Shown here: one piece after another, positions 7,931 through 26,641 of the stretch
Layout: each line of letters starts with the position of its first letter
Position numbering within the stretch: position 1 is the stretch's first letter
Assembly (NCBI GenBank): GCA_028279865.1
Contig: JANQMV010000039.1
Span: 1 to 36,855 of the forward strand
DNA: 36,855 nt
Direction of reading: 5' to 3'
Source of the DNA: Candidatus Altimarinota bacterium
GTDB lineage: Bacteria > Patescibacteriota > Gracilibacteria > JANQMV01
Made by a program: the position numbers and the translations under genes
The notes under the pieces: generated by a model
The model's database searches: none
Seen by the model: the letters and a program-made list of their open reading frames with translations, nothing else
What the model was told of the DNA's origin: nothing

Positions 7931-9463
7931 ATGAAGAACTGGTTTAAACAGCATAAAATGCTGATTTTTGTTTTTTTGATTTTCATTTTTCTAGGCATCT
8001 TTTATTTTGCGATGCAAAAATTCGCAAAAGTTCCAATAAATTCAGAAATAAATAATTCTGAAGAGAAGATAAACGGAAACATTAACGAAAAAATCCCATA
8101 TGCTTTAAATGATCCCTTTTTAAAACACCATAAATTATTAGATTTTGCTAAGCAAGAGCTTAGAACAAGTGAAGTTATTCTTGGAGATGAAAAAAAATCC
8201 AATAATGGAATGCCGGACACATGGAATGGTTTTAATACAAGAGTTTCAAACCTAAATCTAGGGCGAACTTCTGATTCGGAATATTATACAGAGGAACAAA
8301 ATCCCAAGAAAATTGATGGTATTTATTATGTAAGAAGTGTAGAAGGAGTTCCGACTCTCTATAAAATGGCAACAAACGCTGAAATTGCCTATGAAGTTGA
8401 CATAAAAATTCCGCCAAATTCTGCGAAACATAAAATGATCAGCGAGAAACATTTTGCTTACATTGCAGAGGTTGATGTTGATCAAACAGGTAAATCAGTT
8501 GTGGTGCTTAATTTGGAAACCAACCAAGAGCATTTGATCAATGCCTCTAAACCGGAAATGAGAATTGCTTCTATTTTTGCTAGTCCTGATGCCAAAAAGA
8601 TTGTCGTTGGAGAAGAATATCCTCCCACATCCGGAGATAATTTTGCAACCGGAGATACCTTAAATCATAGGGTTTGGGTTTACGATTTAGAGAACCCGGA
8701 ACTTGAACCTGCTTTTATTTTTGACCAACAGCTTGATGTTATTGAAAGGTGGCCAATTTTTTGGTCACAATTGGATAATAAGGTTTATTTTAATTCATGC
8801 GATGTTAAAGAATTGCACTGTAATTTTGGCATAACACGCACTTCACCTATCTCGGATGACCGAGAGCCTGTTCCCGGTTTAGAAGTGGGAACTTATGCTT
8901 CTCAGCCGGTTTTGTCTAACAATGGTCGGCACATTGCTTATGTTGCTTGGAATGGTAACAAAGAGACTCCTTTATACAAAGAAGGGGATAACAAGAATAA
9001 TGAATTTTTGAATAAAAACAGTATTTGGCTTTATGATATTGAAAATGGAGAAAAAAAAGAGTTAATTGATTTTGGTAACAACCGTATTATCGATCATTTG
9101 TTCTGGTCTCCTGACGGGATGTTTATTTATTTTGAATTGAGACAACTTGTCAAAAATGTAGATGGAAGTGTTTTTCCTACTTCAAATAGTACGGGTTTTT
9201 GGAGGGTTAATGTTGCTACGGCTAAATTTGAGAGAATTGCTCAAGATGTTACGATTAGTCCGGGGCAAATACTTTCTCATTTTAACCCTGTGCCGAACGG
9301 AAGCGGAATAATGTTTACAATTACAAAAATTTTCCCAAAAACAACTTTTAATGATCCTACAAAAGAAGTTGAGAAAGTTGAATATCTCTTACGTTTGTCG
9401 GATATGAAACTTATTGAATTAGGTGATAATGTAATGAGCGTGTTTAAAACAGAACCTCTTTAA
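7931..9463 (+). CDS. Membrane-anchored beta-propeller (TolB/WD40-like) protein
   Basis: One N-terminal membrane segment (MLIFVFLIFIFLGIFYFAMQ, about residues 9-28) anchors a large exterior domain. From about 120 to 500 there are repeated blade-like strands of the TolB-propeller type: SPDAKKIVVGEEY, RWPIFWSQLDNKVYFNS, PVLSNNGRHIAYVAW, SIWLYDIENGEKKEL, LFWSPDGMFIYFEL. I infer a substrate- or protein-binding scaffold on the cell surface. It is the first of three consecutive exported proteins (next genes 54 and 81 bases away) that precede the VirB6-like cluster, so a structural role in that system is possible. No TGA and no Shine-Dalgarno. Specific function unknown. Confidence 0.75.
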   Translation: MKNWFKQHKMLIFVFLIFIFLGIFYFAMQKFAKVPINSEINNSEEKINGNINEKIPYALNDPFLKHHKLLDFAKQELRTSEVILGDEKKSNNGMPDTWNGFNTRVSNLNLGRTSDSEYYTEEQNPKKIDGIYYVRSVEGVPTLYKMATNAEIAYEVDIKIPPNSAKHKMISEKHFAYIAEVDVDQTGKSVVVLNLETNQEHLINASKPEMRIASIFASPDAKKIVVGEEYPPTSGDNFATGDTLNHRVWVYDLENPELEPAFIFDQQLDVIERWPIFWSQLDNKVYFNSCDVKELHCNFGITRTSPISDDREPVPGLEVGTYASQPVLSNNGRHIAYVAWNGNKETPLYKEGDNKNNEFLNKNSIWLYDIENGEKKELIDFGNNRIIDHLFWSPDGMFIYFELRQLVKNVDGSVFPTSNSTGFWRVNVATAKFERIAQDVTISPGQILSHFNPVPNGSGIMFTITKIFPKTTFNDPTKEVEKVEYLLRLSDMKLIELGDNVMSVFKTEPL

Positions 9464-9516
9464 ACATTAAACATTGACCTTTTAATTAAAAATATTTCAT
9501 TAAACAATTTCTTGGT

Positions 9517-11031
9517 ATGAATAATATAAAAAAAAATTGGGGATTAATTCTTTTCTTTTTTCTTGTCGCAATAATTCCATTAAAAGCAGATGCGCGTACT
9601 GCAGAAAGTTTTAAGGCTCACTGTAGTCAAAATTTGCAATTTAATGATTTTGCCTCAATTACAAGTATTCCACCTGCCTTAAATACACCATTAACCCAAG
9701 CAGATGACGGAGGGTGGGTTGCTATCTATGAAATTGATACTGAAAATGAAAACACTTCTTCCGAAGAATTACTTATTGAAGTAGCAGGAAGTGTTAATAA
9801 AAACAATGCTTATGCAACAATTTGTATTAATGGTTTGGTGCTTGGAGTTGTTCCTACATATCAAATTTCACCTACGGATACCGATAGTTATTTTAAAATT
9901 CAATATACACTTGAGTTAAAATCAGGAGAAGAATCAGGGGTAAAAGCTATTAACCCAATTGTTTTTTCTTCAAACAGTGATTTTGCATCTGTTAATAAAG
10001 TAAATGATTGGAATGATGCTGATTTGGCTTTCATAGAATTAGAAGAAGTTCAGGCGGATCTAATACCTTCTTTTAGCGATGATTTTGAAAAAATTGCAGG
10101 AGGGTATGCTTATCATGAAGTTTACGCAACCTATAGTCCTCAAGACTTAGCTGTAAAGAAAAAAGCTTTTACTATGGAGGCTTTTGATAGGATTACCAGC
10201 TTTAACTATGCTATTTTTCCTCCCCTTGAAACATTAAGTGGTTGCAATGCTTCTTCTTTGGCGAATTTATCCGTTGAAGATATAAAATGCTTTCCTGCAA
10301 AAAGGCAGGAGGAATTTAAAAAATATTTTCTGGGTTTACCTGAGGTAATTCAACGTCTCTTTGACTTTGCTGCAGATGTTGAAGACGAACCGGCTTCAAT
10401 AGATGGTTCTAGGGAGTTAATTGTAAATTATTTTAATGAAAAAAGCGGAAGTTTAGAATCTGCTCCAACTACAGGGGAATGGCTCTCAATTTCTGAGGAA
10501 GACAAAAAATACAGATATTTTCCAATTAAATCTATTGAGATTGATTCTGACTTAAGTAATGGATTGGAATCTTACTACGATATGTGTGATCCTTCTCTGC
10601 CTGCAAGTGAATTTAATGGTTGTTACAGCGGGATACATGGTTGTAATGTTAATAATAATTTAGATATTATTGCTGAAGTTGGTCAATCTATGGTTGTTGG
10701 TCAGGGGATTTGCTCCGGAGAAAATCTGCCGGCAGATACAGCTTCGCTTTTGAGTCACGTGGGTATCAATGATCCAAATGATCCTAAAATCGTTGCTTTA
10801 GCAAATATGAATGCAGAAGCAAATAAAATTTGTAGAGAAATTAATGACTCTGGTTCTATTTCCAAACTTCAAGCGATCAATGCCTCTTCTGTTGCAATTA
10901 CGCAATATTTAGCAGATCTTGATTCTCGCTATGAAGGTTTTAATGCTTGCGAAAAAATTAGTGCCATCAATACTTTGTCGGGGCTGATGGATAGAACTTT
11001 AGAGGTTTTAGGTAGATCCAGCCAAAACTAA
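9517..11031 (+). CDS. Exported protein of unknown function, 504 aa
   Basis: A clear Sec signal peptide covers residues 1-27 (basic MNNIKKNW, hydrophobic LILFFFLVAIIPL, cleavage near ADA). The mature part begins with a beta-rich region and later becomes helical (NMNAEANKICREIND, ITQYLADLDSRYEGF). About nine cysteines, several in CNASS, MCDPS, NGCYSGIHGCN and GQGICSGE, suggest disulfides in an exported fold. I do not recognise a family. It is flanked on the same strand by two other exported proteins, so the three probably form one transcript and may act together on the surface. No in-frame TGA. Confidence 0.75.
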   Translation: MNNIKKNWGLILFFFLVAIIPLKADARTAESFKAHCSQNLQFNDFASITSIPPALNTPLTQADDGGWVAIYEIDTENENTSSEELLIEVAGSVNKNNAYATICINGLVLGVVPTYQISPTDTDSYFKIQYTLELKSGEESGVKAINPIVFSSNSDFASVNKVNDWNDADLAFIELEEVQADLIPSFSDDFEKIAGGYAYHEVYATYSPQDLAVKKKAFTMEAFDRITSFNYAIFPPLETLSGCNASSLANLSVEDIKCFPAKRQEEFKKYFLGLPEVIQRLFDFAADVEDEPASIDGSRELIVNYFNEKSGSLESAPTTGEWLSISEEDKKYRYFPIKSIEIDSDLSNGLESYYDMCDPSLPASEFNGCYSGIHGCNVNNNLDIIAEVGQSMVVGQGICSGENLPADTASLLSHVGINDPNDPKIVALANMNAEANKICREINDSGSISKLQAINASSVAITQYLADLDSRYEGFNACEKISAINTLSGLMDRTLEVLGRSSQN

Positions 11032-11112
11032 ACTTTATTTTTCAACTAACTTTCTAGATTGCTTTAGGGAGTTTTGATACGCAAAATTTTCTTGGTATTT
11101 TATAAAAATTTT

Positions 11113-13923
11113 ATGAAGAAATTTACACCTTTTTTGCTTTTCTTTCTCTTTATTGTCGCAGGATTTTTCTTTTTTTGCTCTATTCCGAAAGCTCAAGAAT
11201 TTGCATTTTCCAGTCCGATCTGGAGAGGTGGAGAAATTAATGTCTATGGAAAACAGTTAATTAAGCAAGACAGTTTAAAAATAAATTTGAATTTGGAAAT
11301 TCAAGATCGTTTGATTGAAAAATTTGCAGAACCGGAAGATGAAATTTCTGTTTTATTTGTTGCAGAGAGACTTTTTGATGCTCAAGGTAAAGCGCGTACG
11401 ATAAATAATGAATTTTATTCGACTGTTTTGACTCCTGCAGGCAGACCTATAGAGTTTTCAGAAAACTTGTGGGGTGCTCCATCAAAGTTTAATACCAAAG
11501 AAGACGGGCTATTTTTTACTACCCCCTTAGACAAAATTAATTCTTTTAAAATTAGAGATTTTCAAGATGATCGGACCGGAAAAATCAGGACGATTAATTT
11601 GCAAATAGAAGAAAATATTGAGTCATTTGAAAAAGGTTTATACAGACCGAGAGTTTATTTCTTTTATAATAAAAAAGGGGTTAATGAAAATAAAAAAGCA
11701 ACACCTGAGAAATCAATTCTTTTGGTAAGGCAGGCCTTGTTCCCTTTGAAAAAAGAATTCATTAGTAAGCCTGATTTATGGGATAGTGTTGATGATTATA
11801 AGGCGTTAAAAGATCAAATTTTTTATTTGCCAATGTTTAAAAAGGGTAATCTGGAAGAGTTAAAAATGCCTGCAGTTCTTTTTGCGGAGGAAAATTCTCA
11901 AGGTTCTCGCGGAATTGTTGCCGAAGAGGATCGTGATAATTTTAGAATCTCTACTCATGAAATCAATCAGTCTAAGTTAGTCCTGCCACCTCAAAAATAT
12001 TCTCTTAATCCTGCTTTACCTTTAGTCGCTTCTTACGACTCTGAGCTAAAAGTTAAGACGGAAAGAGTTCCATTAATGAAAAAAGGTTTTTTAGAGGGAG
12101 AAATTCACTTGCCTAATGGTTCAATTGAAAAAATTTCAAGGAAAAAAATTACGGATTTTGGTGTTGCCGACGAAGGACCTTTTCAAACAGGTCAAGCCAT
12201 TGCTTGGAAAAAAATAAAAACAGAAAACAAAAACACCTATGATTTCGAGAAAACAGGAAAATATAAAGTCTTCTTAAATGGGAAAATTTATGATGAATAC
12301 AATAATGCATATGAGATAGGTGGTACGTATGACTTTTTTATTGGTAAGAAACTTACTTTTTCTTCTGCAGTGAAGCCGGGCACGCCCTTTTTTGTAGGTG
12401 ATGCTTATTTCCCGAGGTTTGCTTATTTTCCTTCTTTTAAGGGGGCTGTAAAATTTAAATATACTTTTTATCCTTTTGATAAATCAAAAAAACCTGTTGA
12501 GCAAGTGATTGAAAAAGAAAATGTTGAAGGAGGATTGGGAGCACCTCCGATCCCTTTTGAAGAACCCGGGGAATATCATGTAGAAGTATTTGCAAAAGCA
12601 GATCATTTTATGATGGGGGAACATTTTGGCACTTATGTTGGTGGTGCTTTGGTTTTGCCAAGAGATTCAAAATTGGAATTACACGGTAAAATAGGTGCTA
12701 ATTTTGCAGATGGTACAAAGATTACTGAACCTCGTTTTATTGCTGAACGTAATCCTATTTTTGAAACAAGGCGTGAATTTTATTTTCCATATTACTCAGG
12801 AGATATTTTAAAAATTGCTGCAAACGCAAATAATGCAATTGATCCAAAAGTGGAAGCGAAAGAAAAAGGTGGAGAAAAAATTACAGTAATTCCGCGCGCA
12901 TTAAATAATTTTCATCCTTTTAATTATCCGGAAAAAATTAATCGGCATGCTTTTCTTTTTATTGTCTCTGAGAAAGCAGGATTAATTGCGCGAAGCTTTG
13001 TAGGAAGTGAATTTTTAGAGCATGGTTTTTGGAATGTTAGAAATCAAAGTTTTGGTGGTCGTTTAAATTCGAGCAAGTATGGAGATTTGGAAAATGACAT
13101 TTATCGAAACTTTGCTGCAGTTTATTATGAAGATGAGAAGGGAGAATGGAAGTCAGATCACTATGTTTCCAATATAACCATTACATCGGAATTTGCAGAG
13201 GATGATCGGGTTATTGAACCTTTCTCAGAGAATTTTGCTGTTACTCGTGGCGTTGAAACTCCATATTTAGTTGGAACGGCAATGCAAAAACCTCTTGGTG
13301 CTAATTTTTCTCAATATTTGCATGTAGCTCCAGCTGTTGGTGATGTTAAAATTCAAATAACTTTGACTGATCCAAATGGAAAAGTAATAAAATTTCAGCC
13401 GGTTTATACAGATGAACATGGTTTTACTCCTATTGGTGAAACCTATCCTTTGGATATTTTAGGTGTTTGGCATGTAAGAGCTGATGCTGAATATAATGGA
13501 ATTAAAGCTGAAGACTTATATAAAATTTTTGTTATTTCAGAAGAAACTGAAAAATGGAATATAGGGATACCGTATATGTCAAAGATTAAACCTGAGGCAC
13601 CTGTTGTTTTTAAGGGTAGTGTTCCTGAAGCTGCAGAAAAAGTTGAAATTGATTATGAAGTTATCACTCCGGGCGCAGTCTTGGATTCCAATGAGATTAA
13701 TATTTGTGACTTTAAAATGGATGAAAACGGTTTTGAATACCATTTTGATTTTGAGAAAATTAATTCAATTTACAAAAATTTTGAAATTCAACCACTTTCC
13801 AGAATGGCTATTTTATATTTTCACCTCTCCGGTGAGATTGAAGGTGAGAGATTCTATAAATTTGGGACTGCGATGATTAGGTCAGATAACATGTACTATT
13901 TGGGAATTTTACCAGAACATTAA
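11113..13923 (+). CDS. Large exported beta-rich protein of unknown function, 936 aa
   Basis: The ORF track starts at a TTG (11074), but ATG at 11113 gives a textbook signal peptide: MKKF, then a 20-residue hydrophobic core ending GFFFFCSIPKAQ. The mature chain looks like serial Ig-like or beta-sandwich modules. Phrases such as NTYDFEKTGKYKVFLNGKIY, PFEEPGEYHVEVFAKADHF and GETYPLDILGVWHVRADAEY resemble strands of PKD/fibronectin-type domains. No transmembrane segment after the signal. I infer an extracellular or cell-surface protein. It ends TAA overlapping by 4 bases with the convergent RidA gene. No TGA in over 900 codons, unlike the neighbouring VirB6-like gene. Confidence 0.75.
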   Translation: MKKFTPFLLFFLFIVAGFFFFCSIPKAQEFAFSSPIWRGGEINVYGKQLIKQDSLKINLNLEIQDRLIEKFAEPEDEISVLFVAERLFDAQGKARTINNEFYSTVLTPAGRPIEFSENLWGAPSKFNTKEDGLFFTTPLDKINSFKIRDFQDDRTGKIRTINLQIEENIESFEKGLYRPRVYFFYNKKGVNENKKATPEKSILLVRQALFPLKKEFISKPDLWDSVDDYKALKDQIFYLPMFKKGNLEELKMPAVLFAEENSQGSRGIVAEEDRDNFRISTHEINQSKLVLPPQKYSLNPALPLVASYDSELKVKTERVPLMKKGFLEGEIHLPNGSIEKISRKKITDFGVADEGPFQTGQAIAWKKIKTENKNTYDFEKTGKYKVFLNGKIYDEYNNAYEIGGTYDFFIGKKLTFSSAVKPGTPFFVGDAYFPRFAYFPSFKGAVKFKYTFYPFDKSKKPVEQVIEKENVEGGLGAPPIPFEEPGEYHVEVFAKADHFMMGEHFGTYVGGALVLPRDSKLELHGKIGANFADGTKITEPRFIAERNPIFETRREFYFPYYSGDILKIAANANNAIDPKVEAKEKGGEKITVIPRALNNFHPFNYPEKINRHAFLFIVSEKAGLIARSFVGSEFLEHGFWNVRNQSFGGRLNSSKYGDLENDIYRNFAAVYYEDEKGEWKSDHYVSNITITSEFAEDDRVIEPFSENFAVTRGVETPYLVGTAMQKPLGANFSQYLHVAPAVGDVKIQITLTDPNGKVIKFQPVYTDEHGFTPIGETYPLDILGVWHVRADAEYNGIKAEDLYKIFVISEETEKWNIGIPYMSKIKPEAPVVFKGSVPEAAEKVEIDYEVITPGAVLDSNEINICDFKMDENGFEYHFDFEKINSIYKNFEIQPLSRMAILYFHLSGEIEGERFYKFGTAMIRSDNMYYLGILPEH

Positions 13924-14423
13924 TTTTTATTTAATGCCCAAAGCTCTATTTCAACCAGTAAATCCGAGCGGCAAATCTTAGCTTCAACGCAAGTTGCCGC
14001 CGGGTAAAAAGGTAGCTCTAAAGAGTCATAAAATTTTTTACGGGTTTTGCAAAAATCTTCATAATCTCTGTCAATATCACGTAAATAAATATTGGTTTTT
14101 ATCACATCTTTCCACTCAAGTTCGCTTTCTTCCAAAAGAGCTTTTAGATTTGCAAAAGTTCTCTCTGTTTGGGCTTTTAAATTATTTTTGTGAATACTTT
14201 CACCTTTTTCATTTACACTTGCTGTTCCCGAAATAACTACAAGATTAAAAGGACCGTAACTGATTTTTGTTCCTCTGGAAAAAGTAGCGGGTTTTGCGTA
14301 CGAGTAAGCTTCGTTGAGGCTCTTTGGAGCAGATATTTGTTTTTTGATAATTTTTATTATGGATTGATTTTTTATCCTTAAAATGATACAATTATCGGAA
14401 TTATTAGGCAAACTAAAAAACAT
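13920..14423 (-). CDS. RidA/YjgF-family protein with uncertain start
   Basis: Small cytoplasmic protein of the YjgF/YER057c/UK114 family, whose typical member RidA hydrolyses reactive enamines/imines made by PLP enzymes. Signatures: LVVISGTASVNEKGES, KAQTERTFANLKALLEESEL, KDVIKTNIYLRDIDRDYEDF, FYPAATCVEAKICRSDLLVEIE. The conserved core starts near ISAPKSLNEAY. The start is unresolved. The track start at 14477 runs into the VirB6-like gene. The ATG used here shares the CATG with that gene's ATG on the other strand. A later non-ATG start near 14350-14360 is also possible, since AAGGA occurs just upstream on this strand. This subfamily's DRDY form differs from classical short RidA. Confidence 0.85.
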   Translation of the reverse strand: MFFSLPNNSDNCIILRIKNQSIIKIIKKQISAPKSLNEAYSYAKPATFSRGTKISYGPFNLVVISGTASVNEKGESIHKNNLKAQTERTFANLKALLEESELEWKDVIKTNIYLRDIDRDYEDFCKTRKKFYDSLELPFYPAATCVEAKICRSDLLVEIELWALNKN

Positions 14424-17313
14424 GAAGCTATTAAATTTCATCAAAAAAATTGGAATTATTTGTTTTTTGACTTTCACTTTTTTTCTTTCTTGAGAAAGCG
14501 CAAAGGCTTTTGATGAGGATTATGTTGACTTGATTATCAAAATTCATATTGGAAGGGAAGAAGGTCAGCTTTATTCATTTAACCCCGAAGGTTCCCATTT
14601 ATCATTAGCTTTTCAAGATGAGTATTTGCCAAATGATGCCGGGGACTATTCCGGAAATAGAGATTACGCTCAAAGCGTTTGGATTGAATTAAGCCAATTT
14701 GGTCTTAATCCTACCAATTTTGCTTCTTATGAAAGCGCTTTAGCTGCTTTAGAATCTCAAGTACTGCCGGAAGATATTCAAGATATTTTACTGGTTAATG
14801 CGAGTAATTATCAAGAAAACCAAGATGGCAACAATACTTTTTTAGTTTCTCCGCTTGATGGTTTTTTGCATTTTAAGATTAGAAAATCATATTTATTGGG
14901 ATTAAATCCGAATCCAAGTATAAAAATTATCTCTCCTGCATTACCTCCCACTTTAGATGCTAAATTTTGTATTGAGGATGTTCAATGTTCTTCTTCTAAT
15001 TTAAATGAAATGGGGGTAAATAGATGAATTACGCCATACGGTTTTTTTGAAGATGGAGGACTTTTTTCCCAAGAAATAAGTGTTGCAGCATTTGCAGAAG
15101 AAGATTTGGGATTAGATAAAGTTATTGTTGGCTTAGTTATCACTAAGAACCATGAAGAACAAATGACTCGTCAAAATTTTGTTAAAACTGCGGCATGGAC
15201 TTCTAGTTCGCTGGTAACCTTTTCGCAAAAATTTGTTATTAGAGGATTCCATTTATTAGATTGGGTTTTGCAAGTTGATAATAGCGGAATAGAAGACGAA
15301 TCAATTTTAACTTATTATAAAAAAATTCTTGCTTCTATAAACGGACTTTTGATTGTTATTTTGTTAATAATCGCTTTGCTTTGGAATTTCAGTTTTTTTA
15401 TTACAGGAGAGCGTTTACGAAAAATGATGCTAACTTACTTTATAGTTGTGATTGTTGTAAATTTTTCAGTTCCTCTTGTGAGGTTGGGGATAGATGGCGC
15501 GAATATGTTACAAAATGTTTTTTTGTATACCCAGGATCCTCTAACCTGAGAATCTCGTAAAATTGTCGCCAGTGATTTTTTTGATTATGGATGAATTGAG
15601 TATGACCAAGTCAAAGGATATGCTTTAGAAAATGTGAATAGAGAATACAGAGAAATTATTACACAAGGAACATTGGATACAACTTCGGATTCTTTTACTT
15701 TTGAAGGAGAGTTTCCCGTAGCTTCAATTGCTGGTTGATTTGACTCTATTTTTACTAGCGTACTTTCTGAAGGGGCTTCTTGATCGGGAACAATTAATAA
15801 CAACACAGATACTTTTGAAATGGTTACACAAGTACCAATTAATGAAAGATATGAAGACCGTATTTTTCATTCGGTTATGCTTCTTTTAACAGGACTTGGC
15901 TATTTCTTACTAAGTATGGTCTTTTTATTTAGAATTGTTATTCTTTGGTTTATTATTATTTTATCTCCATTTTTATTCCTTCTCTTAACTCTCCCATTTT
16001 TAAAAGGTTATTTCAAATATTGGATTTGGCTCTTTGTACGTTGGATTGTGATTTGACCGCTTTTGGCAATCTGTATCGGGGCATCTATTTTTATTTGGAA
16101 AGAAATAGGAGTGCCAATTACCAGTTTGTATTCATCTTACACTTCCTATGCACAGTCTACTAATTTCCAGATATCTGCTCCGGGGATGACAACCACAGGT
16201 TTAAATTATACAAAGCCAATGGCAGAGTATATTGTTGCTCTGATTATGCTTTATCTTCCTATTCTGTTAGCTTTCTGGTTAACACGTAGATTAAATGGCG
16301 GAGCTTGTTGTAATGCCGACTCTTCAAAAGGCTTCTTTAATTTATTCAGAAAAAAGAAATACAATAACCTTCCTCCTTCCGGATCAAATAATTGAAATGA
16401 ATCTGCTGAAATGCCAAAAACAAAGTCGCCTCAAAAATCAGCGATAGGGCAATTTGCTACAAAAATGTTGGGAAGAGATGAAAGTAAGTTTAGTTTTGCT
16501 AATAAAATGATTAATGAAGAAAATTGAGCTAAGTGAGCTACGCACTCTTCTAAATCGAGTTTGAAAGACTTGGTGGACACCAAAAAATGACTTAATAATG
16601 AAAATATTGTTAATAAAATCCAAAAATTAGACACCCAGTTTTTAGCTGAATTATTAAACCTGATTCCAATAACAAATGAAAATCGTAATCAAGCTCTTTG
16701 AGAACTTGGTGATTTAACTAATGTTTCCAATCAAATAAGAAGAGATAATTTGGAAGGAATTAAATGAGAATTAGTAGAGCGTGCTCAGAATGGTGATAAA
16801 ATGGCACAGAGTATTGTCGAAGAATTGTCACAAGATTCAGGGAGTTCAAGAATTGAGTGAATGCAAGATTCAGCAAAAGAGGAAAAAATTCCTCAGTCTA
16901 TAGATGAAAGCACAGAAGGAAATAACTCTCTATGAACAAAAGTTTGAGAGGAGAATATGTTAACTCAGTGAAACAGTGAGTATGTTGATGATATGGATGA
17001 TCTTAATCTTCAGACGAATCTTAATCCGGAAAAATCTTATGTAAAAGCTTGAGATTCATTACGTCAGGAAGAATCTTTAAACAAAAATTTCAATTTAAAG
17101 AATGATTCTGTCTGAGAAAATAAAAATTTTTATTATGCAAAAAATGAAACGCAAGATTGATTAAGGAGATGAAAACAAGCTAAAGAAGACATTATTTCAA
17201 GCAAATTAAATACAGCGTGACTAAAGGAGAAGAAAAGCTCATTTTCCGATAAACCTAAGTCTTATTGAACAGAAGAACGTGGTCTGGATCACTTAAATCC
17301 TTGAAAAAAATAA
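14422..17313 (+). CDS. VirB6/TrbL-like membrane protein rich in UGA-glycine codons
   Basis: One uninterrupted frame of 963 aa when TGA is read as Gly; it carries 24 in-frame TGA codons and ends in TAA. Residues 1-32 form a signal peptide (FIKKIGIICFLTFTFFLS, UGA, then ESAKA). An exterior domain of about 250 residues follows. Membrane segments then lie near 303-325, 335-355, 483-525 (two), 533-558 and 601-626. This layout and phrases such as LPFLKGYFKYWIWLFVRW match VirB6/TrbL-type channel proteins of type IV secretion systems. A roughly 320-residue hydrophilic Ser/Asn/Glu/Lys-rich tail completes it. UGA makes up about a third of all glycines but about two thirds in the tail. It is followed 25 bases later by VirB2-like genes. 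The standard-code track shows only fragments (14530, 15106, 15820, 16063), all in one frame. Confidence 0.85.
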
Positions 17314-17338
17314 ATCAATCAAAGTAATCTCTTTAAAT

Positions 17339-17920
17339 ATGTGAAAAATAAAAAAAATATATCTTCACTTGATAATTCTCCCATTTGTGAGTCTTCCAAA
17401 TTCTGTTTTTGCAAAAGAAACAGCTTTGGGGGAGGCGGATAATTTTTGAGAATTGGTTAGTTTATTTTGGAGTTGGGGATTAAGAATTATTTTACCTCTT
17501 TCGGTTTTGACATTAATAGTTGCAGGTTTTATGTACATGTCTTCAGGAGGTGATGAAAACAAAGTTTCCGATGCTAAACAAGTGTGAACTTGATCAATTA
17601 TTTCAGCGACTATTTTGCTTTTTTCAGGTGTTTTAAAAACTTTTATACAAAAACCGCTGGCAAATATCGAGCAAGGAGGGGGAACACTTAACACTTTGCC
17701 TCAAGTTATTCAAAATATTTCAAATTTACTTTTAACTCTGGTTTGAGCTTTTGCTGCTGTTGTCTTAATTTATAATGGAATTCAATATATGTTAGCAGCT
17801 GGAGATCAAGAGAAAATTGATAAAGCTAAAAAACAATTGAAATATGCTCTAATCGGTTTGATTATAGCTGTTTCATCTTATTATCTGATAAATCTGCTTA
17901 TTAATTTCTGGGTCAATTAA
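17339..17920 (+). CDS. VirB2/TrbC-like membrane protein with two tandem units
   Basis: Frame of 193 aa with five in-frame TGA codons, the first directly after the ATG, so it is invisible to standard-code gene callers. A signal peptide (IYLHLIILPFVSLPNSVFA) is followed by two VirB2-like hairpins. Unit 1 reads ILPLSVLTLIVAGFMYMSSG, then GDENKVSDAKQ and a second membrane helix. Unit 2 reads VVLIYNGIQYMLAAGDQEKI, then DKAKKQLKYALIGLIIAVSS. The pattern 'hydrophobic-YMxxxGDxxKxxxAK-hydrophobic' is the one seen in pilin-like VirB2/TrbC subunits of CPR and Gram-positive conjugative systems. The internal duplication is unusual, as typical VirB2 has one hairpin. Likely inner-membrane or pilus subunit of the same machine as the VirB6-like protein. 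Confidence 0.8.
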
Positions 17921-17947
17921 TTTTAGTTTGTTTAATTAATAGATGAA

Positions 17948-18331
17948 ATGTTTAACATCCTTAAAAAAACTCTTTTCCTTTCTTTTTCTTTTCTTTCAAA
18001 AAAAGCTTTTGCTAATTCTGAACTTGAACTTTGTTCAGATGGTACGGTCAAAGATCCTTCAATCGGCTGTATTGAAGCTCCGGGAGGAATTATCAGTTCT
18101 TATTCCAATATGTATGATTTAATTGCCAGAGTGGGGGATTTTATGCTTGTCAGCGCAGGAAGTATTGCAACAATTATGTTGATTATTTCTGGTTTTCAAT
18201 ATGCAACTGCTATGGGAGATGACGAAAAAATTACCACTGCAAAACGTAACATGAAATGGTCATGAATTGGCTTAGGTATATCTCTAAGTGCTTATTTAAT
18301 TGTTGAATTTGTAATTAAAAACGTTATATAA
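17948..18331 (+). CDS. VirB2/TrbC-like protein, single unit
   Basis: 127 aa with one in-frame TGA (codon 18263-18265, in KWS[TGA]IGLG) and a TAA stop at 18329-18331. An N-terminal hydrophobic signal (LFLSFSFLSKKAFANS) precedes a short exterior section with a likely cysteine pair (LCSDGTVKDPSIGC). One VirB2-like hairpin follows: ATIMLIISGFQYATAMGDDE, KITTAKRNMKWS, then the second helix IGLGISLSAYLIVEFVI. It lies 27 bases after the two-unit paralogue and is clearly homologous to it. The standard-code track truncates it at 105 aa, which removes half of the second membrane helix. Likely a pilin-like subunit; exact role is inferred from family and neighbours. Confidence 0.82.
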
Positions 18332-18394
18332 AAAAACAAAAACAGGAGTGGTCAAGTGATAATCTTGCAAAAAGCTTGTCTATGGAAATTTTAA

Positions 18395-18415
18395 ATGTAC
18401 AATAATTTTGTACAT
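18395..18415. terminator. Hairpin after the VirB2-like gene
   Basis: ATGTACAA-TAATT-TTGTACAT is a perfect 8-bp hairpin followed by GATCTTTTTATTT on the + strand. It lies in the 134-base gap between the UGA-containing VirB2-like gene and the UGA-free one at 18466. It could end the upstream transcript or be an operator. A TATAAT at 18440-18445, 20 bases before the next ATG, may be the -10 of a new promoter, but no good -35 is seen. Confidence 0.5.
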
Positions 18416-18465
18416 GATCTTTTTATTTATTCATGAACTTATAATTTACTCTTAATTCTCCTCTT

Positions 18466-19110
18466 ATGAAAAAGCAAAAACTCACATCATTTTTGGCTTT
18501 ATTTATGATTTTGATCATGAATTTGGCTTTTATTTCTACTGTGGATGCCCTTGATTGTGTGGATGAGGATAATGATGGATATATTGTACTTGATTCAGGG
18601 GATATAGATGATCCGGACGGGAATTATTCTCCGGAAGAATGGAAAATTTATTTCGACGAATATAAAGCTTCCCCCGGAGCGTGTGATGGTATTAATTTCA
18701 AGAAAGGAGCCGAACCTGAAAGATGTGATGCTATAAAGGTTGAGGACAGGAGGGTTATTGCAGAGGGTAATATCTTAGGTTCCAAAGTTAATCCGGGAGC
18801 AATTGACGGACCAAATAATGGAATTGATGAGGATTGTGATGGTGCTGATGGTGAATACGTTCAAGGTGGCAGTAATGCTGCGGATATTACGGATCTTTTA
18901 AACAATATTATTAATATCCTTGGATACTATGTCGTGGGTGGTGTTTCTGTCCTCGTGCTGCTTTGGGGTGGCGTGACCTATGCAGGTGCAGCTGGTGATG
19001 ATACAAAGACGACTAAAGCTGTTAAAGCCATGAAAGGCGCGATTATTGGTTTGATTATTGGTATTGCAGCTCCTTCTATAATTACTTTTATCATAGAGAA
19101 GGTCTTCTAA
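18466..19110 (+). CDS. MopE-like metal-binding head fused to a VirB2-like pilin hairpin
   Basis: 214 aa. Residues 1-28 are a signal peptide (LALFMILIMNLAFISTVDA). The exterior head is very acidic. It opens with a calcium-loop-like stretch DEDNDGYIVLDSGDIDD and closes with VNPGAIDGPNNGIDEDCDG, the hallmark of the 'putative metal-binding motif' repeat of MopE-type proteins. From about residue 140 there is a VirB2-like double-helix hairpin: VGGVSVLVLLWGGVTYAGAA, then GDDTKTTKAVKAMKG, then AIIGLIIGIAAPSIITFII. I infer a pilin-like subunit carrying a divalent-metal-binding exterior domain. Unlike the two upstream homologues it has no TGA codons. A strong terminator follows at 19161-19190. Confidence 0.8.
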   Translation: MKKQKLTSFLALFMILIMNLAFISTVDALDCVDEDNDGYIVLDSGDIDDPDGNYSPEEWKIYFDEYKASPGACDGINFKKGAEPERCDAIKVEDRRVIAEGNILGSKVNPGAIDGPNNGIDEDCDGADGEYVQGGSNAADITDLLNNIINILGYYVVGGVSVLVLLWGGVTYAGAAGDDTKTTKAVKAMKGAIIGLIIGIAAPSIITFIIEKVF

Positions 19111-19252: not shown

Positions 19253-21831
<2,579 letters not shown>

Positions 21832-21881: not shown

Positions 21882-21969
21882 TTTTTATTATCTTTTTCTT
21901 AATTTACCTTTACTTTTACCTTTATTTAGGGTAGAATATATAGAATTATAATTCATATCAAAAGAAAAA

Positions 21970-24605
21970 TGCTGAAAAAAATAGGAATAATTTTGGTTTT
22001 TATCTTTACAACAATTATTTTTGCCTGAAATCAGCCCTCAAGAGGGGAGGATTGATCCCTCGAATATCCCTATCTATCTTTTAATCGAAGCAGTCGAGTG
22101 GAACACAAAGGAATTTTTGATCTAAATTACTCTGCTATTCGCGATAGCCGAATGTTAAGTAATGGCGATGAAATTAAGGTTAGAAAGGCTGTGTGAGTTG
22201 AATTATATTTGAATCCGGAGAGCGTAATACGTTTGGACGATGATACGGAAATAGAATTAAAAGACTATGATGGAGAGGATTTTAGGATCAAGTTGGAAGA
22301 AGGTCAGATTTGGGTAAATATAAATAACTTAGATTTAGAGCTAATGTCTGGCAATGCTCTAATTTCAATGAATAATGGAACTGCTAATATTCAAAGAGAG
22401 GAGAATAAAAATTTCATAACGAGTTTAAAAAATACAAATAAAGTTACTTTGCTCAATGATGATGGGGAAAATTTAAACCAGATTTATCTTCCCGTGAAAA
22501 ATGAAATTACTCTTGTTGATACGGCAATGACGCCGGCTTATGCTAAAGTTAAATTTTCCAAATTAAAAAAAGAGTTAAAAATGACTCATCTTTCTCAAGA
22601 ATTGATTGATGAGCAAGAATGGCTAAGGGAAAATCTTGCGCAAGATATTACTTTTACAAATAGGATGTTCACAGATATCCAGCAAAAATATACAACTGTT
22701 CGTATTTCTCAGGCAGCATCAAATTTTAAAAATTCATTTAATTTTTTGATCTTCAATGATTCCAAAACACAAGAAAGATACTTAAACAGAATTAAAGATT
22801 TATATACAAGTGCTTTTTATTTTGCATCTTTGGAACAAGTAGATCAAGCAAAGGGAAACATATCGAAAATAGATGAAATAAGTTCGAATTTAAATGAAAA
22901 TGTATTACCTCAGCATCTTGATAATTTAAATGGCTTATATCAAGAGTATAAAGAAATTTCTTATAATAATACTTGATTTTTTGTAAAGCAAAAGCTACAA
23001 GGAGATATTTTGTCTTTTGCTTCTGAAGATAAAGAATTGTATAGTAGAGATTTTGAAATAGACGAAGTTAGGAATTTTGAGCAAGCTTTATTTGATTATA
23101 AATTATCCGAAGCAAAAATAATTTTAGCTTGAATTATAAATTCTTGGTCAGAAAAAAGTTCATTCAATCAACAAGAAAAAGAGATTTTATTTGCAAATAT
23201 TGAAAATATCTACAATGCATTGATTTCAAATATTACGAATCTTGACGAAGATTTCCTAGCTTCCCAAATCAAGTTAGAGCAAATGAAACTATCGAATTTA
23301 AATGAGGCTGAGAGAAAGGAAATGGCCTTAGAGAACTTAAAATACAGAATTCGTTTAAGTAGTGATTTTTTGGCATTACGTAAATATACTTTGGCAAAAT
23401 ATATTGCTGAAGAAAATATTGAAGAATTAGAGGAAAATTTGGATAAAACCAATCAATCTGTGCAAAATTATTTGGCTTTATTAAAAAAAGAGCTAGATGT
23501 AAAAATGGCTTATATTGAGGAAAATTTACATGGATCTGCACACTATAATGAAGAAAATTACCAAGACTATTTTTCACAAACAGAAGCAGAAGAAAATGCT
23601 TACAACACTTTGATTGAATACAAGGAAAAAACTATTAGAGAACAAGCTACCTCTAATATTCAGAAAAATATTGAAATAAATTTTGTTTTAGAAAAATTTA
23701 GATCAAATAATATCTATGTTCTTTCTAGTAATATTGAAAGATTGGAGGATCTAGCCGATAAATTTATCATCAAAGAAGCACGTACAACAAAAGAAGACGT
23801 TTTCTCTGCAAAATTTAATGCGACGACAAACGCACTATATGAAATTAAATTTGAATGACAAGAAATTAAAAACAGTTTGCTTTTAGGTGAAATTACTTAT
23901 GCATTGCAGCATATACCTAAAAATCTTGATTCACAAGAGATTGTAGTTAGTGATGATGCTCAAAAATCAACTAAAAGCTTAACCTTTGAACTGAGAAGAG
24001 AAACAGGTTTAAAAATTATGCAAGATTTAGGTTTTGAAGTGGAAAAACAAAATTTACTCAGAAATTCTGAAAATAATATCATTGTTAATTTAAAAATTGA
24101 TGAAATACCAGTTACTTTTATCTTGGATGAACAGAAGCAAACTGCTAGTAACATTATGATTATTGATGTTGGTACGATCGAAGAAGAGATTGCTTTAGAA
24201 GAAATTCTTGAAGTAGTTCGTAATTTTATTGTTGAAACAAAAAAGGAAGAAGAACTAAATTTAGTTGCATCTAACTTAGAAAAAATAAATTTGATGTTTG
24301 ATTTGAAAAAAATTCAAAATTTGGAATTTCAAAAATATCAAATCAAAAGTCTTTATGATCGTAAAAATAAAGTTTTGTTTGATGTTGTTTATGATCTTGA
24401 AAAAGAGGTTTTTAATGAGGTTAATTTGCACGATTTATGAATCTTAAATAATGTTAGGTCTGCTAATCTAATAAAAGAAATAACACAATTGAAAGTTGAG
24501 CAAGAGCAAGTAAAACTAGAAGAAGAAATGAAAGAATGACTTAATGAGGAAAATTCCGGAATACTTCCTGTTCTAGTTCCAAATGAAGAATTTACTGGCA
24601 ATTAA
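21970..24605 (+). CDS. Exported FecR-domain coiled-coil protein with UGA codons and an apparent N-terminal frameshift
   Basis: The main frame runs to TAA at 24603-24605 with eight in-frame TGA codons; the standard-code pieces 22209, 23220 and 23877 are all in this frame. Residues about 45-115 match a FecR domain: LSNGDEIKVRKAV, ESVIRLDDDTEIEL, then IKLEEGQIWVNI. The remaining 700 residues are mostly helical and Glu/Lys/Asn-rich, with long coiled-coil-like stretches. A perfect signal peptide (MLKKIGIILVFIFTT...) starts at ATG 21970 but in another frame. One extra T in the TTATTTTGCC run at 22016-22025 would join them as ...TTIIFA-Gly-NQPS. This is either a sequencing indel or a real frameshift. 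The gene is 18 bases before pilB, so a pilus- or envelope-linked role is likely. Total would be 878 aa. Confidence 0.75.
22034..22060. repeat. GC-rich palindrome inside the FecR-domain gene
   Basis: CCCTC-AA-GAGGG at 22035-22046 is followed by GAGGATTGATCCCTC, a second imperfect inverted repeat. It resembles the core of the intergenic GC-rich family. In frame it encodes the segment between the signal peptide and the FecR domain (PSRGEDGSLEYP with UGA as Gly), next to the apparent frameshift. Confidence 0.5.
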
Positions 24606-24623: not shown

Positions 24624-26285
24624 ATGCAAAATTTTCAAATAAAAACATGAGAAAAAGATGACATTGGTATTTCTCAGGCAATTTCAAATTTTAATCAGGA
24701 TGTAAAGGAAAAAGAGGTAAGTCAAAAAGCGAAAGCTTCAGGTTTGGGGTATATAAATTTACACTGAGTTCATATAAATTCAGATTTAGCCAAGATTGTT
24801 ACCAGAGAAGAATCAGAAAAAGCAGATTTAATTCCCTTTTTAAAAGTTGGTAAAAAGCTAAGAATTGCTTTTTTAAACTTTGAAAAAAAAGAAACCAAGC
24901 TTTTAATTCAAAAATTAAAAGAGCAGGACTATCGTTTAAACTTAAACTTGTGCTCAGAAGAAAGTTTGAAATTTGGTCAGCTTTTATATAAGACAGAAAA
25001 ATTTAAACCACGTACTGAAACAGAGCTGAGTATTGAGGAGCGTGATATTGGTACACATGATGCTGAAATTGAGAATTTGTCAAATTATGCCGATAAGTTG
25101 GAGAATTTGCAAACAGATACTTTGCTTGAACTTATTAGTGCCGGCGCGATAAAGACAGCTTCTTCTGATGTACATATTCAGCCGGAAGAGACACATACGC
25201 TTTTACGTTTTAGAATTGATGGTGTTTTAAAAACTATTTTTAAGATGCCTAACAAGGTTTATCAAGCTTTGGTTAAGCAGGTAAAATATGAATCACGTTT
25301 AAAGTTTAATATTACGCACTTACCTCAAGATGGACAGTTTCATATAAAAGCAAATTGAGTAAAAATTGATGTGAGAGTTTCCACTTTGCCTACTGAGTTT
25401 TGAGAGACACTGGTAATGCGTTTTCTTGACCCGAATAGAGGCATTGTTGAGCTATCTGATTTGGGTGTTAAAGGAAAAAATTTAAAAATTCTGGAAGAAG
25501 TGATTAAAATTCCAAATGGGATGATTCTGGTAACCGGTCCGACTGGATCAGGTAAAACAACCACCCTTTATTCGATTTTGAATCAATTGAACTCATCTGA
25601 AAAAAAAGTTATTACATTGGAAGACCCCATTGAATATCATTTGGAAGGAATTTCACAAAGCCAGGTCGAGGACGAAAAAGGTTACACGTTTGCTTTGGGC
25701 TTACGTTCTATCTTACGTCAGGATCCTGATATTGTGATGGTGGGTGAAATTCGTGATCAGGAAACAGCGGAAACAGCTGCTCAGGCGGCTTTGACCGGTC
25801 ATTTGGTACTTTCGACTTTGCATACGAATTCTGCGGTTGAGACGATTCCGCGTTTGGTGAATATGGGACTTAAGCCTTTTATTCTTGCGCCGGCGTTGAA
25901 TGTTTTGATTGCGCAGAGGTTGGTGAGGCGTTTGTGTCCGATGTGTTCGGAGGAAAGGGAAATTTCTCAGGCTGAAAAAGATTATTTAAAAAAGCGTGTT
26001 CAGCAAATGCAGGAACGTTGAATTGACTTACCTGATTTGCCGGCAAAGTTGAAGTATCCGGTTGGTTGTGCGAAATGTAGTAAAACCGGTTTTCATGGTC
26101 AGGTTGCTTTGATTGAAGTTTTGAGGATTTCAGATGAGATTGAAAAGATGATTTTAAGAGAAGCTTCTTCTGTGGAGATTATGAAGCAAGCTTTAAAGGA
26201 GGGGATGGTTACTTTGGAGGAAGATGGGGTGATGAAGGTTTTGGAGGGAGTGACAAGTGTGAGTGAGATTGTGAGGGTTGCGTAA
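24624..26285 (+). CDS. pilB: Type IV pilus assembly / type II secretion ATPase (PilB/GspE)
   Basis: Hexameric cytoplasmic ATPase that drives pilus extension. Continuous frame of 553 aa once TGA is read as Gly, with five TGA codons; standard-code pieces 24948, 25416 and 26037 share the frame. An N-terminal GspE_N-like domain occupies about 1-130. The core has SSDVHIQPEETHTLLRFRIDG, then STLPTEF-Gly260(UGA)-ETLVMRFLD, Walker A GPTGSGKT at 305-312, the Asp box LEDPIEYHLEGISQSQV, Walker B DPDIVMVGEIRD near 366-377, and the His box LVLSTLHTNSA. A Cys4 metal site is formed by CPMC near 438-441 and CAKC near 482-485, as in PilB/GspE. Directly downstream of the FecR-domain gene (18 bases). A terminator follows at 26331. 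The conserved Gly at a UGA codon is the clearest proof of recoding here. Confidence 0.95.
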
Positions 26286-26374: not shown

Positions 26375-26641
26375 TTATTTATAAATATCTTTTCTGTGTT
26401 TTATGTTTAGGATCATGAGAATTTGAATTTTTCCTGATGTGTCAATTTCAAAGATTGCTCTGTAGTTGCCAATACGAAATCTATATTTATTGTTTTTAAA
26501 TCCTTTGAGTTTTTTTGCATAGTCAAAAATATCTTTTTGTTTTGAAAAGAAAAGAATCTTTTTGATAATTCTTTTTGCAATTGTTTGATTGATTTGTCTG
26601 AGCTCTTTTATGGAGTTTTTTGAATAAACAACGGTGTACAT
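26375..26641 (-). CDS. RelE/ParE-family toxin
   Basis: 88-aa basic protein of the RelE superfamily, usually a ribosome-dependent mRNA interferase. Family pattern: MYTVVYSKNSIKELRQINQT with the alpha-helical start IAKRIIKKI, the central KLKGFKNNKYRFRIGNYRAIFEID with its conserved Arg residues, and the C-terminal ILNIKHRKDIYK, where His/Arg/Lys contribute to catalysis in relatives. It lies 6 bases after the antitoxin gene on the same strand. Length is typical. No TGA codons. The pair may be chromosomal stabilisation or stress module; the role is not visible from sequence. Confidence 0.88.
   Translation of the reverse strand: MYTVVYSKNSIKELRQINQTIAKRIIKKILFFSKQKDIFDYAKKLKGFKNNKYRFRIGNYRAIFEIDTSGKIQILMILNIKHRKDIYK

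What the first reader, a model, noticed from the sequence alone, without database searches (positions are those of the whole stretch)
14422..19110. A VirB6 plus multi-VirB2 cluster hidden by the standard code: candidate undescribed surface machine
Rejoining the frames reveals a VirB6/TrbL-like channel with an exported N-terminal domain, then three VirB2-like genes holding four pilin-type hairpin units (two in one protein). No relaxase, coupling protein or VirB4 ATPase is visible, so this is not an obvious conjugation operon. Directly upstream are three large exported proteins (7931-13923). The set could be a cell-surface secretion or attachment system using T4SS-type membrane parts.
Basis: inference. 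Interest (0 to 1): 0.8.

Follow-up and report, generated by a model that had tools for sequence, protein, structure and literature searches.

The report
Scattered Patescibacteria T4SS: VirB6-pilin cassette
This is the membrane-pore and pilus-subunit part of a known kind of secretion machine that ultrasmall bacteria are thought to use on their host cells; its motor genes lie elsewhere in the same genome, and most of the cassette is invisible unless the stop codon UGA is read as glycine.

Summary
With TGA read as Gly, window 14422-19110 encodes a VirB6/TrbL-like channel followed by three T4SS_pilin (VirB2-like) genes with four helical hairpins, two of them in one protein. Profile, synteny and (weakly) fold evidence agree. 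The same four-gene cassette, in the standard code, recurs in Peregrinibacteria-type genomes.

The interpretation 'undescribed surface machine' is only partly supported. The genome has a VirB4 ATPase, PrgI/VirB3 with a TrsD-like neighbour, four VirD4/TraG-like ATPases and further pilin genes on six other contigs. I found no relaxase of the one class searched. This matches the dispersed, mostly relaxase-free T4SS already described for Patescibacteria, essential for epibiotic growth in one cultured species. The cassette adds a VirB6 in a class where it was reported scarce or absent, a two-hairpin pilin and a pilin with a metal-binding-type ectodomain. The three exported genes upstream are not an adjacent part: a minus-strand RidA gene intervenes, and the one I traced has no relative in 352 other class genomes.

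More surprising: the genome carries a tRNA-Gly(UCA) and an intact RF2 together, and TGA is concentrated in a minority of genes, suggesting an unfinished genetic-code change.

The parts
14422..17313 (+). VirB6/TrbL-like channel protein, 963 aa, 24 TGA(Gly) codons. N-terminal signal helix and exported domain (about residues 24-260), polytopic core (263-369, 475-562, 597-630), long charged C-terminal tail
   Evidence: Family alignment A1: 9/11 members hit PF04610 TrbL; relatives at E down to 7e-71; the six best Foldseek PDB matches of the model are chains of R388 T4SS structures, described as TrwI/VirB6 stalk or inner-membrane complexes, though weak (E 0.44-1.9); model confident only in the core helices
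17339..17920 (+). P1: VirB2-like protein with leader helix and two pilin hairpins (unit 1 about 17444-17647, unit 2 about 17693-17914), 193 aa, 5 TGA
   Evidence: PF18895 6.5e-18 with two stretches, TrbC 2e-7; AlphaFold helices 36-68/73-103 and 119-152/157-192; conserved in relatives
17948..18331 (+). P2: VirB2-like pilin, one hairpin (about 18116-18313), 127 aa, 1 TGA
   Evidence: PF18895 3e-11
18466..19110 (+). P3: VirB2-like pilin, 214 aa, no TGA; signal peptide, about 110-residue ectodomain with a MopE-type metal-binding motif (NNGIDEDCDG), then a hairpin (about 18886-19092)
   Evidence: PF18895 5e-11; PF11617 3.8e-4, below its cut-off; motif conserved in all relatives aligned
13920..14350 (-). 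Boundary, not part of the machine: RidA-family (endoribonuclease L-PSP) gene separating the upstream exported genes from virB6
   Evidence: PF01042 1.7e-20; start codon uncertain
7931..13923 (+). Three exported proteins E1-E3 (510, 504, about 937 aa), no TGA among 121 Gly; probably not part of the cassette
   Evidence: One N-terminal hydrophobic helix each; no family over its cut-off; no relative of any of them in the fetched loci; E3 in 0 of 352 other class genomes
24624..26285 (+). PilB/GspE-type ATPase of type IV pili, 5 TGA; probably a separate surface machine nearby
   Evidence: PF00437 1.7e-122

Best explanation
The cassette encodes the inner-membrane channel (VirB6) and three pilus subunits (VirB2-like) of the Patescibacterial type IV secretion system in a lineage of class Gracilibacteria related to Peregrinibacteria. 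Inferred working: Sec exports the pilins and the N-terminal VirB6 domain; VirB4 (contig 44), docked through PrgI/VirB3 (contig 27), extracts the hairpin pilins from the membrane and stacks them on the VirB6 platform. P3 would put its metal-binding-type ectodomain on the outside, and the other pilin arrays would supply alternative or minor subunits. The machine would then touch a neighbouring cell and move protein or nucleic acid across the contact, rather than conjugate a plasmid. Shown: gene content, homology, conserved order, presence of the ATPases. Inferred: that the scattered parts form one machine, the assembly order, the substrate and the direction of transport.
For: Pilin profiles. TrbL hits in 9 of 11 family members. 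Conserved virB6-P1-P2-P3 order, in the standard code, in L059-L061 and L063-L065 and in most related-loci loci. The six best PDB fold matches of the VirB6 model, of 350,542 chains, are chains of R388 TrwI/VirB6-containing complexes, and DotA-IcmX of Dot/Icm is seventh. VirB4 with P-loop_TraG 5.1e-27. PrgI 1.5e-10 beside a TraC-N/TrsD-like gene. Four VirD4/TraG-like proteins. 22 T4SS_pilin matches at E up to 1, 15 of them over the curated cut-off, on C50 and other contigs. TrsD and VirB3 genes apart from virB4 match what PMC12102498 reports for Gracilibacteria. A pilin-bearing T4SS is essential for epibiotic growth in S. epibionticum (PMC10633639).
Against: The window VirB6 has no Pfam hit on its own, and PF04610 finds nothing in this genome. 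Fold-match E-values are weak (0.44 and above), and P1's fold search was uninformative. No physical link ties the C50 cassette to VirB4 on C44; they could serve different complexes. No VirB8 or VirB1 was searched for. Only one relaxase family was tested genome-wide.
Confidence: 0.8

Rival explanations
1. DNA-import machine like the archaeal Ced/Ted systems: VirB6 pore, VirB2-like pilus and VirB4 motor taking up DNA from a neighbour or host, supplying nucleotides or genes.
For: Ced/Ted consist of VirB6-, VirB2- and VirB4-like parts (PMC9905601); the same three are present here.
Against: Four VirD4-like proteins are not part of the described Ced set. In S. epibionticum a comEC deletion abolishes competence without harming viability, so T4SS essentiality there is not explained by ComEC-linked DNA uptake (PMC12857230); this does not exclude other import routes.
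Confidence: 0.12
2. Remnant or part of a conjugative element (ICE) whose other parts were lost or lie on other contigs.
For: VirD4/TraG-like and VirB4 proteins exist in the genome; VirB2/VirB6 are conjugation parts; the P1 pilin also hits the pilin-like conjugal transfer model NF045849 at 9.5e-14.
Against: Housekeeping flanks (mraY, lgt, mnmA; ligA, rlmH), no integrase or relaxase recognised in the window, no PF03432 relaxase in the genome, and the cassette conserved over many genera.
Confidence: 0.04
3. A new adhesive surface machine built from T4SS membrane parts with the three upstream exported proteins, independent of VirB4.
For: In Peregrinibacteria the cassette lies beside a divergent, weakly YidC/Oxa1-like gene and large Ig/EGF/dockerin exported proteins, so an association with surface proteins is real there.
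Against: Here E1-E3 show no similarity to those proteins, E3 is absent from the other class genomes, a RidA gene intervenes, and VirB4 and PrgI are present in the genome.
Confidence: 0.04

Closest known systems
Patescibacterial T4SS (MPF-FATA-related; Quinonero-Coronel et al. 2025, PMC12102498; S. epibionticum T4SS, PMC10633639)
   Same: VirB4, PrgI/VirB3, TrsD-like, VirB6 and arrays of divergent VirB2-like pilins; mostly no relaxase; chromosomal; in Gracilibacteria TrsD and VirB3 lie away from virB4
   Different: VirB6 sits with three pilins in a cassette; one pilin has two hairpins, another a metal-binding-type ectodomain; that study found VirB6 scarce or absent in Microgenomatia and Gracilibacteria; the genes use UGA as Gly
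Ced/Ted archaeal DNA import systems (PMC9905601)
   Same: VirB6-, VirB2- and VirB4-like parts
   Different: Archaeal; no pilin arrays of this kind in the passages read; direction of transport unknown here
VirB6/TrwI of the R388 conjugation system (PDB 7o3v, 8rt9, 8rtd)
   Same: Best fold matches of the predicted core
   Different: The window protein is much longer, with an exported N-terminal domain and a long charged tail; match E-values weak
Genetic code 25 (SR1/BD1-5 Gracilibacteria)
   Same: UGA = Gly, tRNA(UCA) with Gly identity elements
   Different: RF2 (prfB) is present here; prfB was not detected in any available BD1-5 genome (PMC6851277)

Membership tests
Patescibacterial T4SS | VirB4 ATPase | tested here: met
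   C44:2536-4707, P-loop_TraG 5.1e-27, TraC_F_IV 9e-7; VirB4 phylogeny not done
Patescibacterial T4SS | PrgI/VirB3 | tested here: met
   PF12666 1.5e-10 on C27
Patescibacterial T4SS | TrsD-like protein | tested here: inconclusive
   Gene next to PrgI hits TraC_F_IV at only 0.0032; CONJScan TrsD model not available
Patescibacterial T4SS | VirB6 | tested here: met
   By family: 9/11 relatives hit TrbL; fold matches to R388 TrwI complexes weak but top-ranked; the window sequence alone has no hit
Patescibacterial T4SS | VirB2-like pilin array | tested here: met
   Three genes in the window plus C12, C29 and C15 arrays and single genes
Patescibacterial T4SS | No relaxase (usual, not absolute) | tested here: inconclusive
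   PF03432 absent; other relaxase classes not searched; genome 95.8% complete
Patescibacterial T4SS | VirB4 falls in the Patescibacteria clade of the VirB4 tree | not tested
Patescibacterial T4SS | Required for growth on a host cell | not testable with these tools
   No culture
Conjugative element (ICE) | Relaxase and integrase near the transfer genes | tested here: not met
   None recognised among the window ORFs; no PF03432 in the genome
Ced/Ted DNA import | VirB6 + VirB2-like pilin + VirB4 | tested here: met
Ced/Ted DNA import | DNA taken up rather than exported | not testable with these tools
   Needs an uptake assay
Genetic code 25 | UGA at conserved Gly positions | tested here: met
Genetic code 25 | tRNA-Gly(UCA) | tested here: met
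   C1:4485-4561, G1:C72, C2:G71, G3:C70, U73; the criteria of PMC8629427
Genetic code 25 | RF2 lost | tested here: not met
   prfB on C59, 464 bits against cut-off 370, SPF and GGQ motifs present

The most novel reading that the evidence does not exclude
The organism is caught in an unfinished change of the genetic code: it keeps an intact RF2 while carrying tRNA-Gly(UCA), and UGA-Gly codons are concentrated in a minority of genes that include the T4SS channel, pilins and type IV pilus ATPases. Full-length VirB6 (24 UGA) and P1 (5 UGA) would then depend on the tRNA outcompeting RF2, so decoding could limit or gate the surface machinery.
Probability: 0.3. Interest if true: 0.8.

Novelty: new member of a known kind. 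Interest (0 to 1): 0.5.

Why it matters
It supplies a VirB6 channel and a conserved VirB6-pilin cassette for a class in which a 3,035-genome survey reported VirB6 scarce or absent, so the machine there can now be searched for with a proper profile. It also shows that standard-code gene calling hides parts of it. The co-occurrence of RF2 and tRNA-Gly(UCA) would give a rare natural test of how a stop codon changes meaning.

Tried and rejected
P1 fold search against PDB returned only unspecific helix bundles. PDB sequence searches with the VirB6 and P1 profiles gave only chance-like matches. The idea that the 997-aa gene next to VirB4 on C44, or long genes on C29, C15 and C12, are further VirB6 copies was tested by hhalign and failed. 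PF04610 and PF03135 found nothing in the genome. E1-E3 as part of the machine was rejected. No terminator and no promoter excess was found around the cassette, and no Rfam element.

Full report
What is in the window. The window is a whole contig (C50) of a 1.48 Mb, 59-contig genome estimated 95.8% complete. Read with TGA = Gly, the stretch 14422-19110 holds four plus-strand genes: a 963-aa VirB6-like protein, then P1 (193 aa), P2 (127 aa) and P3 (214 aa), spaced 25, 27 and 134 bases apart. Under table 11 the VirB6 gene breaks into pieces. VirB6 has 24 in-frame TGA, P1 five, P2 one, P3 none. At P1 codons 37, 85 and 136 and VirB6 codon 545 every aligned relative has Gly. Other TGA positions mostly fall in variable or gapped columns, many of them in the C-terminal tail, and are not informative.

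Pilins. All three proteins hit T4SS_pilin PF18895 (6.5e-18, 3e-11, 5e-11); P1 has two stretches, so four hairpins in three genes is right. AlphaFold places a leader helix and two helical hairpins in P1 (pLDDT mostly 65-82 there). The fold search with this model was uninformative. P3 carries a MopE-type metal-binding motif before its hairpin (PF11617 3.8e-4, below cut-off); NGIDEDCDG-like residues are kept in all relatives aligned.

VirB6. The window protein has no Pfam hit, but it aligns with relatives at E down to 7e-71, and 9 of 11 members of that alignment hit PF04610 TrbL, best 2.9e-10. Three members carry DUF11, consistent with an exported N-terminal domain. AlphaFold is confident only in the core helices. 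Its PDB fold matches are weak by E-value (0.44-1.9), yet the six best of 350,542 chains belong to R388 complexes that contain TrwI/VirB6, and the Legionella DotA-IcmX protochannel is seventh.

Conservation. The order virB6-P1-P2-P3 recurs in six of the genome-search loci (L059-L061, L063-L065). Two more (L058, L062) keep VirB6, P1 and P3 with another gene, or a gene on the other strand, where P2 would be. It also recurs in most related-loci hits, whose records are named Candidatus Peregrinibacteria, Candidatus Gracilibacteria or Patescibacteria group bacteria; several of those are the same contigs as the first set. Those relatives have no in-frame TGA in VirB6. A profile of the family matches 61 of 353 class genomes, about 20 strongly and the rest weakly. 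Beside the cassette in Peregrinibacteria lies a divergent gene family of 335-371 aa (856 aa in one genome); two of the members scanned show sub-threshold similarity to the YidC/Oxa1 insertase (60KD_IMP 7.6e-6 and 1.4e-4). Large exported proteins with Ig-, EGF- and dockerin-type domains follow.

The rest of the machine. VirB4 is on C44 (P-loop_TraG 5.1e-27). PrgI/VirB3 is on C27 (1.5e-10) with a TrsD-like gene just downstream of it (TraC_F_IV 0.0032). Four VirD4/TraG-like proteins are on C34, C6, C35 and C32. More pilin genes are on C12, C15, C29, C31, C6 and C14, one of them fused to about eight PKD domains. No PF03432 relaxase was found; other relaxase classes were not searched. The window itself shows only housekeeping and envelope genes on either side.

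Comparison with what is known. Quinonero-Coronel et al. 2025 (PMC12102498) describe a T4SS in most Patescibacteria with VirB4, TrsD, PrgI and VirB2 arrays, mostly without relaxase, with VirB6 scarce or absent in Microgenomatia and Gracilibacteria and with TrsD and VirB3 in Gracilibacteria not near virB4. Wang et al. 2023 (PMC10633639) found the T4SS with its pilins essential in S. epibionticum. The present set fits that kind. The new points are the VirB6 assignment, the conserved cassette, the two-hairpin pilin and the ectodomain pilin; I found no description of them in the papers searched, which is not proof that none exists. How it works remains inferred: contact-dependent translocation on a host cell is most likely, DNA import as in Ced/Ted (PMC9905601) is the main rival.

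The exported neighbours. E1-E3 (7931-13923) each have one N-terminal hydrophobic helix and no family over its cut-off. They show no similarity to anything in the fetched relatives. E3 has no relative in 352 other class genomes. A minus-strand RidA gene lies between them and virB6. I reject them as part of the machine.

The genetic code. The genome has a 77-base tRNA with anticodon UCA that carries Gly identity elements (ARAGORN's label SeC rests on the anticodon). It also has an intact RF2 gene (464 bits, SPF and GGQ motifs), on a contig that also holds TGA-using genes, so it is not easily explained as contamination. In 260 kb read, 135 of 187 ORFs of 150 aa or more lack TGA, against 56 expected if TGA were spread evenly over Gly codons (at most 78 in 2,000 simulations). 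TGA-rich genes use it for 25% of Gly. The ORF set is a mechanical call and includes some spurious frames, and the stretches were chosen around T4SS, tRNA and prfB hits, so these numbers are approximate and not a genome-wide sample. Few ORFs look as if they end in TGA (ligA ends ATGA overlapping rlmH, with TAA four codons on), against 22 of 160 in relatives. Known code-25 BD1-5 genomes lack prfB (PMC6851277; compare PMC8629427). Whether this RF2 still acts at UGA cannot be told from sequence.

Noticed in passing
G000:C59:6984-8006 (L090, L139) and G000:C1:4485-4561 (L127): Intact RF2 gene (SPF and GGQ motifs) and a tRNA(UCA) with Gly identity elements in one genome; other UGA=Gly Gracilibacteria are reported to lack prfB. 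Possible transitional code.
   Followed up: partly
Window and own-genome loci L046-L056, L134, L138, L139: TGA(Gly) is very unevenly spread: T4SS, pilin, PKD, FecR-like and type IV pilus ATPase genes use it, most housekeeping genes never do; E1-E3 have 0 of 121 Gly as TGA.
   Followed up: partly
Window 21364-21367: ligA appears to end in an ATGA overlap with the rlmH start, with a TAA four codons later: a candidate surviving TGA stop.
   Followed up: partly
L049:6578-10357 (C15): A 1258-aa exported protein with an N-terminal T4SS_pilin hairpin fused to about eight PKD domains.
   Followed up: no
L047:20-1947 (C12): Two pilin-array proteins of 313 and 325 aa with several hairpins each: more multi-unit VirB2-like proteins.
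   Followed up: no
L076:7402-8514 and homologues in L058, L059, L061, L063-L065: A gene family, weakly YidC/Oxa1-like in two members, divergent from the virB6-pilin cassette in Peregrinibacteria; might insert the pilins.
   Followed up: partly
Window 21969-24605: FecR-domain-like exported protein of 878 aa, 8 TGA, next to pilB; no clear family (FecR 9e-4, below cut-off).
   Followed up: no
Window 26375-26641: ParE-like toxin gene on the minus strand (PF05016 1.4e-7); antitoxin not looked for.
   Followed up: no
L134:10367-11221 (C27): Exported putative zinc metallopeptidase two genes from PrgI; sub-threshold matches to metallopeptidase models only.
   Followed up: no
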